The notes under the pieces: model-generated | What the model was told of the DNA's origin: nothing | The model's database searches: none | The model's input: the letters and a program-made list of their open reading frames with translations, nothing else | Part shown: positions 11,195-60,978 of the stretch, piece after piece | Layout: each line of letters opens with the position of its first letter | How positions within the stretch are numbered: the stretch's first letter is position 1 | Made by a program: the position numbers and the translations under genes | Source of the DNA: Buchnera aphidicola (Taiwanaphis decaspermi) | Lineage (GTDB): Bacteria; Pseudomonadota; Gammaproteobacteria; Enterobacterales; Enterobacteriaceae | Length of the DNA: 64,000 nt | Direction of reading: 5' to 3' | Assembly: GCF_039405155.1 (NCBI RefSeq) | Contig: NZ_CP135049.1 | Coordinates: 1-64,000, forward strand

Positions 11195-12298
11195 CTAAAT
11201 TTTTAAAGGCATAATAATATATATCAGAAGATAACCGTTATTTTTTTTTTCAAGCTGAATACAAGATATTTGTTTTTCTAATAGTAAATTAATATATTTA
11301 GATTTGATAATATTTAAAATATCTAGAATATAATTAATATTAATATGAAAATTTATATTTTTTATTTCATTTTTAGTTTTTATTAATTCTTTTATCTCAT
11401 CTTGTTCTTTATTATTAGCTTTAATAATTATATTATTTTTTTTAATATTTATGTTTACAGCACAAAATTTTTCTTTTGCTATAATTGAAGCTCTTAATAA
11501 AGCATTTTTTATAATATCGCATTCTAATTTAATAATATTATTCGGTTTTTTTATAATAATGTTTTTGTAATCAGGAAATTTACTATTTATTATTTTAGAA
11601 GTAAAAATGAAATCATTTAAAACAAATCTTATATTATTATTATTGATAAATATTTTTATTTCTATATCGTTATTATCTAATATTTTTATTAGCTCTAATA
11701 TGCTATCTCTAGATATTATTACTGAGTGTTTCAAAAAATTATTTTTTATGGTAGAAACACATTTAGATAATCTATAACCATCAGTTGCTACTGTTATAAT
11801 TTTATCATTTTTTATTTTCAAATAAATACCATTCAAATAATGACGTACATCATTTTTTCCCATAGAAAAATAAATCATCTGAAACATGTATTTAATTTTT
11901 GATTGTGAAATTTTAAAACTTATTTTTTTTTCAAAATTGTTTATTATTGGAAATTTATCTACAGATAATGTTTGTAAAGTAAATGTTGCATTTTTGGACG
12001 TAATTTTTATGATATTTTTGTAGCAAATAATATCTATTAAACTATGTAAATTAAATTTTCTACAAATGTTTAAAAACTTTCTAGCATGTATTAGAAACAT
12101 GCCTTTTGTATATATTTTGTTAGCTTTTAATTTTGCTTTTATTTCTATATCTAAATTAGTTGTTATTAATATTACATCATTTGAATTAATTTTAACTAAA
12201 ATATATTTTAAAATATTTAATAAAGAATTTTTAGAAATTGATATGCAAATTTTTTGTAAAGTAACAACCATTGTTTCTCTTTTTATTGTAAATCTCAT
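11195..12298 (-). CDS. dnaN: DNA polymerase III sliding clamp (beta subunit)
   Basis: Ring-shaped processivity clamp. 367 aa against 366 in E. coli. The three-fold repeated clamp fold is poorly conserved at sequence level, but MRFTIKRETMVVTLQKIC at the N-terminus, VATDGYRLSKC in the second domain and the C-terminal GYLLIYIIMPLKI (E. coli ends in YVVMPMRL) identify it. ATG 12298 is 5 bases from the dnaA stop, so it is read with dnaA. Order dnaA-dnaN-gyrB with recF lost. Confidence 0.94.
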   Translation of the reverse strand: MRFTIKRETMVVTLQKICISISKNSLLNILKYILVKINSNDVILITTNLDIEIKAKLKANKIYTKGMFLIHARKFLNICRKFNLHSLIDIICYKNIIKITSKNATFTLQTLSVDKFPIINNFEKKISFKISQSKIKYMFQMIYFSMGKNDVRHYLNGIYLKIKNDKIITVATDGYRLSKCVSTIKNNFLKHSVIISRDSILELIKILDNNDIEIKIFINNNNIRFVLNDFIFTSKIINSKFPDYKNIIIKKPNNIIKLECDIIKNALLRASIIAKEKFCAVNINIKKNNIIIKANNKEQDEIKELIKTKNEIKNINFHININYILDILNIIKSKYINLLLEKQISCIQLEKKNNGYLLIYIIMPLKI

Positions 12299-12303
12299 TT
12301 TAA

Positions 12304-13600
12304 TTATACTATTAATGTTTGAATTAAATAACGAAAATCTATCTGTATATCTTTATTTTTTTTACGTAAGTAGTTTATTTTCCTATAGGAATACAAAATA
12401 GTAGTATGATCTCTACCACCAAAACTTTTACCTATTTCGATTAAACTTTTATTTGTTAATTTTTTAGATATAGCGATAGCTATGTGTCTAGCCATTGTTA
12501 TAGATTTATATTTATATTTAGATGTTAAATCAATTGGTGATAAATTGTAATAATTTGCTACAGTTTGTTTAATTTTTTCTATGCTTATTTTTTTTTTATA
12601 TAATATATTTTCTTTATTTATTTTTTTTATGAAATTAATTGTTATTTTTTTTTTTTTTAAATATGAAATAGTTAATATCTTATTTAACACACTTTCTAAT
12701 TCTTTAATACTAAATTTTTTATATTTATAAATATGATCAATAACCTTTTTTTTTAATTTTATATTCTTGTTTTTTAGTTTATTTTTTATGATATTTACAA
12801 TAGTTTTTTTTTTTATATTTTTTATACATATAACCATTCCCCAATTAAATCTAGATTTCAATCTTTCTTCAATATTATTTATAATATTTGGATGTTTGTT
12901 AGCAGTAATAATTATTTTTTTTTTGTTTTCTAAAATATAAATAATAGTATGCAATAATTCTTCTTGTGATCTAATTTTATTTTGAAAAAACTGTATATCA
13001 TCAATCAATAACAAGTCAACTTTTCTATAATATTTTTTAAATTTTTCAATAGAATTATTTTTTAAAGATCTAACCATATTTTCTACAAATTTTTCAGAAT
13101 GTACATAAATTACTTTTAAATTAATTTTATTCAATTTAACATAATTAACTATAGAATGTAATAAATGAGTTTTACCTAATCCAGTTTTACCATATAAAAA
13201 AAGAGTGTTATAAATATTTTTTTTGAAAATAATAATTTTTATTATTTTTATAATATATTCATTTGATTTATCCGTTATAAAATTTGAAAAACTATTTTTT
13301 TTATTGACATTGGAATGATAATTTATATCTATTTTTTTTTTTTATATAATTTTTCTTTTCATTTTTTAATGAAAATTTAATAACAGGAGCATTATTTCCA
13401 TAAATATTATTTAATAATCTACTAATGTTGTTAAAGTATTTGTTTTTCACCCAATCTAAAGCAAATCTATTAGGTGTATATAAAATTAATATTTGATTTT
13501 TTAATTCAGTTTTTATTGGTCTTATCCACATACTAAATTCTGTTGCTGGTAATTCTTTTTTTAAATATATAAGACATTTTTTCCATAATATAGATGACAT
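12304..13600 (-). CDS. dnaA: DnaA replication initiator, frame broken in a poly(A) tract
   Basis: Binds oriC and opens the duplex. The gene begins at ATG 13600 and the first frame stops at 13301, encoding domain I (WKKCLIYLKKELPATEFSMW) and a 12-residue nonsense tail. From the tract of 12 T at 13332-13343 (A in the coding sense) the shifted frame carries INYHSNVNKKNSFSNFI, Walker A GKTGLGKTHLLHSI, Walker B LLLIDDIQFFQ and the DNA-binding signature GGRDHTTILYSYRK to the stop at 12304. Dropping one A joins them into about 431 aa. No other lesion is visible and the DNA downstream of the shift is well conserved, so I infer a working gene rescued by transcriptional slippage rather than a decayed one. 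Confidence 0.85.
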
Positions 13601-18016: not shown

Positions 18017-19681
<1,665 letters not shown>

Positions 19682-52544: not shown

Positions 52545-54543
52545 ATGAAAAATATAAAAAAAAATTTTAAAATTGATATTAAAAATAAACTATCATAATT
52601 ATTTATATTACTCAATAAATGATCCAGAAATTACAGATTATCAATATGATTTGCTTATAAATAAATTAAAATATTTAGAAAAAAAAAACCCAAATTTAAA
52701 ACAAAAAAACTCACCTACTAAAAATATTGGAAATGGTATTTTTTTTAAAAAAAAAACATATAAACATTTATCTCCAATGTTTTCTTTAAATAATATATTT
52801 ACATATAAAGAATATTTAAAATTTGTAATAAAAACAAAAAAAAAAATAAAAAAAAATAAAAAAAAAATAGAATTAATTTGCGAATTAAAAATAGATGGAG
52901 TTGCAATAAATTTAATTTATAAAGAAGGAGTTTTAATAAAAGCTTTAACAAGAGGAAATGGTATTTCAGGAGAAGATGTTACAAAAAATATATATAATAT
53001 TAAATCTATACCAAAAGAAATAAATCACGAGAAAATACCTAAAAAAATAGAAGTTAGAGGTGAAATTTTTATAAATAAAAAAAATTTTAAATATATTAAC
53101 AAAAAATTGTTAACAAATAAACATAAAGTTTTTTCTAGTGCTAGAAATGCAGCTTCTGGATCTATATTACAAAAAAACCCTAAAGTTACATACCAAAGAA
53201 AATTGATGTTTTTATGTCATGGTTATGGTTATTGGGAAAATAAAAAAAAACCTAAAAGTTATTTAAATGCAATGATGAAACTAAAATCTTGGGGTTTCCC
53301 GGTAGATAAAAATATTTGTTTATATAAAAATGACAAAAATATATATTCATATTATAATAAAATTAAAAAAAAAAGAAAAAAAATAAAATTTGATATAGAT
53401 GGAATAGTAATTAAAATAAATTCAACAAAATTACAAAATAAAATTGGATATACATCTAAATTTCCTAAATGGGCTATTGCTTTTAAATTTCCTGCTGAAA
53501 AATGTGTTACTAAAGTTAAATATGTTAAATTCCAAGTTGGAAGAACAGGAGTTATAACACCTGTTGCTTATTTAAAAACTTGTTATATAGCTAATATTAA
53601 AATTAAAAAAGTTTCTTTATATAATTTAAATAAAATATCAAAATTAAATTTATATATTAATGATATTGTTATTATTAAAAGATCTTGTGATGTAATACCT
53701 AAAATTACAAAAGTAATAAAATCAAATAATAAAAATAAAAAAAAAATAAAAATACCTATTTATTGTCCTTCATGTAAATCAATATTAAAATATTCTTATA
53801 AAAAAACTACATATAGATGTTATGCATCTTTAATATGTAAAGATCAAATAAAAAAATCTTTAAATCATTTTGTTTCTAAAAACGCGTTTAACATAAATAA
53901 TTTTGGTCCAAAATTGTCTAATTTTTTGATTGATAATAATTATATAAAAGATTTTTCTGATATTTTTAATTTAAATACCTATATATTAGAAAAAAATAGT
54001 TTTATTAGTCATAAAAAATCAAAAAAAATAATAAATTCTATAAAAAATTCAAAAAAAATTTTACTATACAAATTTATTTATTCTTTAGGAATAAGAAATA
54101 TAGGAACTATTAATTCTTTAAATATATCTAATTATTTTAATAATATAAATAAAATAATTAATGTTTCATTAAAAGATTTATATAAAATTAAAAATATAGG
54201 TATTAAAACTGCTAATCGTTTTTATAGATTTATATATAATAAAAAAAATAGATTAATCATAAAAAAATTAATTAGCATGATTAAAATAATTTACTATAAA
54301 TATGATAAAAAAAATTATTTTTATAATAAAAAAGTTTCAATAACAGGTATATTCGAAAATTATACTAGAAAATATTTAAAAAACTTTTTAATAAAATCAA
54401 AAGGTATATTTACAAATAATGTTTCGAAGAATACAGATGTTTTGTTAGTTGGAAAAAAATTTGGTTCTAAATTTTATATTGCAAAAAAATTAAATGTTAA
54501 TATTATAAAAGAAAACAAACTAAAAAAAATATTAATTCAATAA
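52545..54543 (+). CDS. ligA: NAD-dependent DNA ligase, 5' end frameshifted in a poly(A) tract
   Basis: Seals nicks using NAD. The long frame runs from TTG 52573 to 54543 (656 aa; 671 in E. coli). An ATG at 52545 behind AAAAGG reads MKNIKK and then stops after 17 codons. Removing one A from the run of 9 at 52556-52564 joins them as MKNIKKILKLILKINYHNYL, matching the E. coli N-terminus, total about 665 aa. Either slippage or a TTG start is needed. Adenylation motif CELKIDGVAI, zinc cysteines CPSCKS and YRCYASLIC, helix-hairpin-helix region and a C-terminal BRCT domain are all present. Many poly(A) runs follow. Confidence 0.88.
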
Positions 54544-60390: not shown

Positions 60391-60978
60391 GTGCAAGAAA
60401 AAATAAAATCGTTTTTTTATAAAAACATTAAATTACAAAAAATAGTTCTTAAAAATATTTCTAAAAAAATTTGTAATGCAAATAATGTTTTTGTTAATTC
60501 TTTATTGAAAGGTAATAAAATAATAACTTGCGGTAATGGCATATCAGCAGCAATAGCACAACAATTTACTACAAGAATGATGAATAGTTTTGAAAATAAT
60601 AGACCTAGTTTACCATCCATATCTATTAATACTGATAATATTTTAATGAGTGCAATAAATAATGAAGGATTACATGAAGAGATTTATGCTAAACAAATTA
60701 AGGCTTTAGGTAATCATGGTGATGTTTTGTTTATTATATCTACAAAAATAAATAATAGAGATATTATTAAAGCAATAGAGATATCTGTAAATTTAGGCAT
60801 TAATATAGTTGTTTTGAATAGTTGTAACTCTAGAGTATTAAAAAAAATATTAGGAGTTAAAGATATAGAAATATGTATTCCTTCACATTCTACATCTAGA
60901 GTTAATGAATTACATACAATAATTGTTAATTGTTTATGTAATCTTATTGATTACACATTGTTTCCATGTAAAAAATAA
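60391..60978 (+). CDS. diaA: DiaA, DnaA-binding SIS-domain protein
   Basis: Tetramer that in E. coli binds DnaA and promotes timely initiation. 195 aa (196 in E. coli). GTG start at 60391 behind AAGG, as in E. coli. CGNGISAAIAQQFTTRMMN, RPSLPSISINTDN, HEEIYAKQIKALGNHGDVLF and the C-terminal ELHTIIVNCLCNLIDYTLFP match DiaA rather than the related GmhA (no heptose pathway seen nearby). Its only known partner, DnaA, is frameshifted at 13332. Confidence 0.9.
   Translation: MQEKIKSFFYKNIKLQKIVLKNISKKICNANNVFVNSLLKGNKIITCGNGISAAIAQQFTTRMMNSFENNRPSLPSISINTDNILMSAINNEGLHEEIYAKQIKALGNHGDVLFIISTKINNRDIIKAIEISVNLGINIVVLNSCNSRVLKKILGVKDIEICIPSHSTSRVNELHTIIVNCLCNLIDYTLFPCKK

What the first reader, a model, noticed from the sequence alone, without database searches (positions are those of the whole stretch)
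13301..13400. dnaA split by a single-base shift in a run of 12 A
The sequence shows two abutting frames. The first encodes DnaA domain I and ends at 13301; the second, open well upstream of its first possible start, carries domains III-IV complete with Walker A, Walker B and the DnaA signature. They switch exactly at the homopolymer 13332-13343, and dropping one A gives an intact protein of about 431 aa. Everything past the shift is conserved, unlike a decayed gene. Transcriptional slippage on poly(A) tracts restoring frames is established for AT-rich insect endosymbionts, so the initiator may be made only from a fraction of transcripts, which would also tune its amount. A sequencing error in the homopolymer is the main alternative.
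Basis: partly seen in the sequence, partly recalled or inferred. Interest (0 to 1): 0.75.

Follow-up and report, generated by a model that had tools for sequence, protein, structure and literature searches.

The report
Replication gene split at poly-A linker
In this aphid symbiont's genome the gene for the replication initiator DnaA is cut into two reading frames at a run of 12 A's between its protein-binding part and its motor part, and relatives have split the same gene at the same place about four other times, which makes a mere sequencing slip unlikely and suggests the gene is used in a damaged state on its way to being lost.

Summary
dnaA lies on the minus strand; domain I (13600-13301) and domains III-IV (13341-12304) are in different frames that meet at A12 (13343-13332), and the downstream frame has no ATG/GTG/TTG before Walker A. 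The host is a Buchnera-type symbiont (456,983 bp). Comparison adds more. Of 32 Buchnera-type genomes read that keep domain I (window included), 7 have dnaA split by a poly-A (10-14) frame change, each in the domain II linker (7 breaks in 30 linker tracts of 10 or more A; 0 in 49 elsewhere in dnaA; 2 in 307 in other genes). A tree suggests four or five origins. In one three-species genus all are split, yet both halves are under strong purifying selection. Other lineages have domain I eroded or dnaA gone. So the split is probably real, in a gene kept partly alive by slippage at A-runs (a known kind of rescue) but not firmly held. In the window the downstream half is weakly constrained (14 of 85 conserved columns changed, sensor-2 Arg to Lys), so 'everything past the shift is conserved' is only partly right. 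Sequencing error and an early pseudogene remain open; reads and cDNA would decide. No evidence of dosage tuning was found.

The parts
13301..13600 (-). ORF1: DnaA domain I (99 codons, ATG start), ends out of frame after the tract
   Evidence: W6, E21, W25, N44, F46, W50 present
13332..13343 (-). A12 tract in the domain II linker where the frames switch
12304..13341 (-). second frame: linker end plus DnaA domains III-IV, 345 codons open from the tract
   Evidence: TIGR00362 E 3.6e-106
13168..13191 (-). Walker A (GKTGLGKT)
13132..13134 (-). first ATG/GTG/TTG codon of the second frame (TTG), downstream of Walker A
12915..12924 (-). A10 tract inside domains III-IV, frame stays open across it
12804..12814 (-). 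A11 tract inside domains III-IV, frame stays open across it
12645..12658 (-). A14 tract inside domains III-IV, frame stays open across it
12588..12597 (-). A10 tract inside domains III-IV, frame stays open across it
11195..12298 (-). dnaN, downstream neighbour, open over its length
60391..60978 (+). DiaA-like gene (in E. coli DiaA binds DnaA domain I), beside rsmI
   Evidence: best NCBIfam match DiaA, 223.8 bits, below its cut-off of 352; next phosphoheptose isomerase, 178 bits, also below its cut-off; only G000 of 65 genomes has a match above 35% identity

Best explanation
The Buchnera-type dnaA gene carries a real out-of-frame length in the A-run of its domain II linker. SHOWN: two frames meeting at A12; a split in this linker in 7 of 32 genomes that keep domain I (window included), with four or five origins; purifying selection on both halves in one split genus. 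INFERRED: RNA polymerase slips on the A-run, so most transcripts end after domain I and a minority with a changed number of A's encode full-length DnaA; domain II is a length-tolerant linker, so extra or missing lysines do little harm. INFERRED: DnaA is only weakly needed in this lineage, so the split is tolerated and is one step on a path that elsewhere leads to eroded domain I or loss of dnaA.
For: Clean frame switch at A12 with no stop in 345 downstream codons, which hold four more A-tracts of 10-14. Splits at the same linker in G159, G265, G337, G295, G176 and G271, tracts A10-A14; five separate places on a 5-gene tree, but the deep positions of G000 and of the g144 clade are weakly supported, so four origins are possible. 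Breaks in dnaA exceed other genes: 7 in 79 dnaA tracts against 2 in 307, Fisher P 3e-4; gene copies with a tract 7 of 26 against 2 of 178, P 7.5e-6. Counting origins: 5 of 24 against 2 of 178, P 2.8e-4; 4 of 23, P 0.0017. Within dnaA 7 in 30 linker tracts against 0 in 49 others, P 7e-4; five origins P 0.005, four P 0.014. g144 trio (tracts 12, 10, 12; 11 would be in frame): NG86 omega for domain I 0.05-0.12, III-IV 0.05-0.09, below dnaN 0.18-0.30. 13 of 20 genomes with a linker tract are in frame against one third expected, P 0.004, so frame is selected but leakily. Precedent: 12-50% of transcripts corrected in an aphid and an ant symbiont (review PMC5009743, passages); dnaX and dnaG frameshifts in Blochmannia vafer (PMC3017870, passages). 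Domain II tolerates GFP insertion (PMC5448010, passages).
Against: No reads, cDNA or peptides were available. [quoted passage not shown] this tract needs -1 or +2. The same paper says deletions in Buchnera runs rise exponentially with run length. Domains III-IV of the window break 14 of 85 columns conserved in at least 93% of the others, against 53 of 1538 in ten other genes of the genome (P 4e-6); sensor-2 R334 and R399 (E. coli numbering, recalled) are Lys in the window and Arg in E. coli and in nine other homologues aligned. This suits weak or failing function; against dnaN plus mnmE alone (12 of 131) the excess is not significant (P 0.13). The low omega in the g144 trio does not exclude assembly error there. 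No close relative of the window strain was held, so its own split cannot be dated; the one other held member of its genus, G001, is intact.
Confidence: 0.5

Rival explanations
1. Assembly or sequencing error: the true tract is in frame and dnaA is an ordinary intact gene.
For: Homopolymers of 12 are error-prone; two more genes of this genome are split at A-runs in the 8 other stretches read (dapE at A11, priA at A10), that is 2 in about 173 other coding tracts of 10 or more A. In the g144 trio the tract is 12, 10 and 12 around an in-frame 11, which errors could also give; low omega does not exclude it.
Against: 16 other coding A-runs of 11-16 in the window lie in unbroken ORFs (two of them, in gidA and rsmD, lie so near a gene end that a shift would not show). 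Breaks are far commoner in dnaA than in other genes and all seven lie in its linker, which random error would not favour: about 0.5 breaks expected in 79 dnaA tracts at the rate of other genes, five independent ones seen, P 2e-4. No intact copy of this protein was among the best 120 listed of 8000 scored candidates from 5.8 billion proteins, though that may rest on the same data.
Confidence: 0.17
2. Real frameshift and an early pseudogene: DnaA is no longer made and the gene has not yet had time to decay.
For: dnaA is not detectable between dnaN and rnpA in G030, G052, G059, G450 and G119, and 5 of 6 g44, 5 of 5 g52 and 4 of 4 g59 genomes listed gave only weak DnaA-profile hits. In genus g11 the series runs from intact through eroded domain I to lost. 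Domains III-IV of the window show relaxed constraint. No ATG/GTG/TTG lies before Walker A.
Against: 345 codons with four more A-tracts of 10-14 are still open and Walker A, Walker B, the box VII Arg and the DHTT signature remain. Two relatives with unbroken frames (G342, G451) are as relaxed, so relaxation need not follow from the break. A DiaA-like partner of domain I is kept here.
Confidence: 0.22
3. Two separate proteins: domain I is made from ORF1 and domains III-IV start on their own from a non-standard codon, so the split is a real gene fission.
For: Domains III-IV stay open without domain I in G443-G445 (omega 0.15-0.23, dnaN 0.16-0.28) and, with their own ATG, in G021 and G214, outside the Buchnera-type set. 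G271 and G295 have an ATG in the second frame before domain III.
Against: In the window, G159, G337 and G265 no ATG/GTG/TTG precedes Walker A.
Confidence: 0.06

Closest known systems
Poly-A frameshifts corrected by transcriptional slippage in Buchnera and Blochmannia (Tamas et al. 2008, Wernegreen et al. 2010: recalled and cited within papers seen; review PMC5009743, passages)
   Same: AT-rich insect endosymbiont, single frame change in an A-run, frames otherwise open; selection on both sides in the g144 trio
   Different: here no cDNA or protein data; the gene is the replication initiator; the breaks recur in one interdomain linker in four or five lineages
Blochmannia vafer dnaX and dnaG homopolymer frameshifts (PMC3017870, passages)
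   Same: replication genes split at A-runs and counted as intact by the authors
   Different: different genes and genus
dnaX tau/gamma in E. coli and other bacteria (PMC3017870, and PMC5009743; passages)
   Same: slippage on an A-run in a replication gene giving a short N-terminal and a long product
   Different: there established; here no stimulator or product known
Loss of dnaA in insect endosymbionts, e.g. Blochmannia (PMC4389277, passages)
   Same: dnaA dispensable in several lineages; relics as pseudogenes
   Different: that paper says Buchnera species have retained dnaA; here several Buchnera-type genomes have none detectable

Membership tests
DnaA (TIGR00362) | profile match over domain I and over domains III-IV | tested here: met
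   ORF1 4.5e-12 (45.8 bits alone), second frame 3.6e-106 (355.8 bits, cut-off 343.9)
DnaA (TIGR00362) | Walker A, Walker B, box VII Arg, DHTT signature (names and E. coli numbering recalled) | tested here: met
   K178, T179, D235, D236, R281, R285, D433-T436 equivalents present
DnaA (TIGR00362) | sensor-2 Arg (R334, recalled) | tested here: not met
   Lys in the window, Arg in E. coli and in the nine other homologues aligned
DnaA (TIGR00362) | one continuous reading frame | tested here: not met
   frame switch at A12
slippage-corrected poly-A frameshift gene | single frame change inside a long A-run, frames otherwise open | tested here: met
slippage-corrected poly-A frameshift gene | purifying selection on both sides of the shift | tested here: inconclusive
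   met in the g144 trio; in the window no close relative and relaxed downstream half
slippage-corrected poly-A frameshift gene | mixed tract lengths in cDNA but not in DNA | not testable with these tools
   no reads
slippage-corrected poly-A frameshift gene | frameshift kept across related species | tested here: inconclusive
   split in 3 of 3 held species of g144; the other held member of the window's genus, G001, is intact
programmed frameshift (dnaX type) | dedicated slippery site with stimulatory RNA structure and fixed phase | tested here: inconclusive
   phase not fixed (needs -1 in G000, G159, G337; +1 in G265, G176, G271); RNA structures not tested

The most novel reading that the evidence does not exclude
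In several Buchnera lineages an off-frame A-run in the DnaA linker is a maintained switch: slippage sets a low dose of full-length initiator and makes a surplus of free domain I that binds DnaA or DiaA, so replication of a host-controlled, polyploid symbiont is throttled by polymerase infidelity.
Probability: 0.1. Interest if true: 0.85.

Novelty: new member of a known kind. Interest (0 to 1): 0.52.

Why it matters
Some insect endosymbionts have lost DnaA and others keep it, and why is not settled. A recurrent split at one linker, next to relatives with intact, N-terminally eroded and lost dnaA, gives a natural series in which the need for DnaA, and the power of slippage to rescue an initiator, can be tested directly with DNA and cDNA reads from aphids. 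It also warns that 'missing' or 'pseudo' dnaA calls in Buchnera annotations may be poly-A splits.

Tried and rejected
Internal start for domains III-IV in the window: rejected for ATG/GTG/TTG (first one lies after Walker A). DnaA-box cluster at the origin: TTWTNCACA hits are scattered in the 227,895 chromosomal bases scanned and the only one in the last 3,895 bases of the contig lies far from gidA (no chance control run); not informative. Protein search for an intact sister copy: none among the best 120 listed of 8000 scored candidates; the only identical hits were the window's own two fragments. P0003, the 276-aa fragment, is listed with a longest contig of 27,375 bp, not 453,895; I had no way to fetch that contig, so whether it is an independent assembly is unknown. 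The YN00 method failed for many pairs; I quote NG86, whose dS is high for some pairs (up to 1.2 for one domain I pair). A short ATG-led frame before the A13-A14 tract in G443-G445 looked like a new leader, but its codons seem to change mostly non-synonymously (by eye); not pursued. dnaC hits in the frame-switch list are dnaA found through the related AAA+ domain and were dropped with dnaT and rsmD before the counts; switches in G457 atp genes (several, mostly without long A-runs) and in G441 and G208 dnaA (decayed) were not counted as clean breaks. Short pieces at gene ends (such as ligA in the window) are missed by the method in every genome. A structure prediction was not run.

Selection of genomes: one search took 25 small genomes beside G000, chosen partly for low DnaA scores, so 7 of 32 may be too high; held genomes of g107 and g125 that I did not read (G242, G317, G439, G326, G390) had full-length-level DnaA scores.

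Full report
WHAT IS THERE. The window is from a 456,983-bp genome in two contigs; gene order (gidA, atp genes, gyrB, dnaN, dnaA, rnpA, yidC, mnmE, groES, groEL; names mine, from the translations) and a 3,088-bp trpEG plasmid whose matches in PLSDB are 49 of 55 Buchnera records, all at 60-80% identity (the 20 listed at most 72.9%), mark it as a Buchnera-type aphid symbiont. dnaA is on the minus strand. ORF1 (13600-13301, 99 codons) is domain I; a second frame (13341-12304, 345 codons) is domains III-IV. They meet at A12, 13343-13332. The second frame opens inside the tract and has no ATG/GTG/TTG before TTG 13134, past Walker A. One A fewer, or two more, in the RNA would join them.

IS THE ASSEMBLY POOR AT A-RUNS? 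In the window 17 coding A-runs of 11 or more lie in genes; only the dnaA linker one is seen to break a frame, though two others (gidA, rsmD) lie so near a gene end that a shift would not show. In eight further 20-kb stretches, with 126 coding-strand A-runs of 10 or more in ORFs of at least 100 codons, I found two more clean splits: dapE at A11 and priA at A10. So about 2 in 173 other tracts of this genome are off frame, by error or truly. ligA in the window may have a further shift at A9 near its start, which my method does not catch.

THE SAME SPLIT IN RELATIVES. [quoted passage not shown] In each the frames switch in the linker at A-runs of 10-14. The change needed is -1 (or +2) in G000, G159 and G337, and +1 (or -2) in G265, G176 and G271; G295 needs -1 in one of two runs. 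A 5-gene tree puts the seven in five places, with intact relatives next to G295, G176 and G271; the deep positions of G000 and of the g144 clade are weakly supported, so these two might share one origin.

IS IT MORE THAN CHANCE? In 42 genomes (20 kb each) A-runs of 10 or more in other genes numbered 307 and two broke a gene (G169 dnaN, G252 rnpA); in the 32 genomes that keep domain I, dnaA has 79 such runs and seven breaks (Fisher P 3e-4; by gene copies 7 of 26 against 2 of 178, P 7.5e-6). Within dnaA all seven are in the linker (30 tracts) and none in domain I or III-IV (49 tracts; P 7e-4). Counting five origins the P values are 2.8e-4 and 0.005, counting four 0.0017 and 0.014. Genomes were partly chosen for low DnaA scores, so the share 7 of 32 is an upper estimate. 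Of the 20 genomes with a linker tract of 10 or more, 13 are in frame, against one third if frame did not matter (P 0.004): frame is selected, but leakily.

SELECTION. In the g144 trio, all split, NG86 omega is 0.05-0.12 for domain I and 0.05-0.09 for III-IV, lower than dnaN (0.18-0.30) and like gyrB (0.07-0.11). Either all three assemblies are wrong at one tract (12, 10, 12 around an in-frame 11) or the full protein is made in spite of the split. In the window strain the picture differs: domain I is 44 of 81 identical to E. coli (E. coli sequence recalled), in the range of relatives, but III-IV only 154 of 336, against 226 of 337 in G001. III-IV breaks 14 of 85 columns that are conserved in at least 93% of the others (domain I: 1 of 12), against 53 of 1538 in ten other genes (P 4e-6), though not significantly more than dnaN plus mnmE (12 of 131, P 0.13). 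G271 (split, 15 of 88) and the unsplit G342 (22 of 91) and G451 (18 of 90) are as relaxed; the splits G176 (6 of 87) and G295 (4 of 85) less so, and G159, G265 and G337 not at all (0-1 of 84). So relaxed need for DnaA and splitting are not the same thing.

A PATH OF LOSS. In genus g11, of 16 held genomes six are intact, one split, six have domain I eroded with III-IV open over 349-363 codons, two are decayed and one has lost the gene. In G443-G445 III-IV without domain I still has omega 0.15-0.23, like dnaN (0.16-0.28); in G448, G442 and G208 it is 0.26-0.32 against 0.10-0.12 for dnaN, a sign of decay. Between dnaN and rnpA no dnaA is detectable in G030, G052, G059, G450 and G119. In one search, 5 of 6 g44, 5 of 5 g52 and 4 of 4 g59 genomes listed gave only weak hits, of the size that dnaC gives elsewhere.

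A PARTNER OF DOMAIN I. The gene at 60391-60978 matches DiaA best (223.8 bits, below the family cut-off of 352; next phosphoheptose isomerase at 178 bits, also below its cut-off) and stands beside rsmI, as in E. coli apart from two missing genes (recalled). Among 65 genomes only G000 has a match above 35% identity; ten others have 30-35% matches that I take for GmhA. Five residues of domain I that bind DiaA in E. coli (E21, W25, N44, F46, W50; PMC5448010, passages) are all present. This suggests that domain I is in use here; it does not show it.

HOW IT MOST LIKELY WORKS. Shown: the split, its recurrence, its place, and selection on both halves in one split genus. Known from papers: A-run frameshifts in such symbionts are corrected in 12-50% of transcripts (review PMC5009743, passages); dnaX and dnaG of Blochmannia vafer carry such shifts (PMC3017870, passages); domain II tolerates large insertions (PMC5448010, passages). 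Inferred: slippage gives a minority of full-length DnaA. Against: in Buchnera RNA insertions dominate in A-runs and no frame restoration was seen (PMC5574713, passages), while the window needs -1 or +2.

NOT FOUND IN PRINT. Searches of the held open-access library for Buchnera with dnaA and frameshift, loss and Cinara, pseudogene (20 of 26 listed), or replication initiation, and for Buchnera with polymerase slippage and frameshift listed no paper whose title or abstract start reports split dnaA in Buchnera; I saw passages of six papers and the full text of none.

VERDICT. A real, recurrent poly-A split of dnaA is the best reading (about 0.8 that the split is real in DNA; 0.5 for the whole explanation with slippage rescue). 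It is a new member of a known kind, made interesting by its recurrence at one linker of the replication initiator.

Noticed in passing
L072 1903-1913 (G000:C1:65903-65913): dapE, a lysine and cell-wall gene, is split by a frame change at A11; both pieces match DapE.
   Followed up: partly
L072 about 18408-18417 (G000:C1 about 82408-82417): priA (replication restart) is split at A10; the pieces match profile positions 2-175 and 168-692 of one PriA model.
   Followed up: partly
window 52545-52573: ligA: an ATG at 52545 leads into A9 (52556-52564), after which the LigA-like frame differs; either a further A-run shift or a start at TTG 52573 with a shortened N-terminus.
   Followed up: partly
window 60391-60978: DiaA-like gene beside rsmI; no other of the 65 genomes searched has a match above 35% identity.
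   Followed up: partly
L120, L121, L122 (G445, G444, G443): DnaA domains III-IV under selection although domain I is eroded and no ATG/GTG/TTG precedes Walker A; a short ATG-led frame runs into A13-A14 just upstream.
   Followed up: partly
L066, L104 (G021, G214): A different small-genome genus with domain I eroded and III-IV open with its own ATG.
   Followed up: partly
L082, L083, L084, L211, L212: No detectable dnaA between dnaN and rnpA; gaps run from about 0.4 kb to 1.6 kb, as if at different stages of erosion.
   Followed up: partly
L183 (G169) dnaN; L193 (G252) rnpA: Frame switches at A13 and A10.
   Followed up: no
L197 (G457), atpA, atpG, atpD: Several frame switches, mostly without long A-runs: the ATP synthase genes look decayed.
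   Followed up: no
L102 (G345), L149 (G455): A22 and A18 in the DnaA linker, both in frame.
   Followed up: no
L063 2554-2757 and 2885-3088: Exact 204-bp direct repeat in the trpEG plasmid contig; the end of trpG is duplicated.
   Followed up: no
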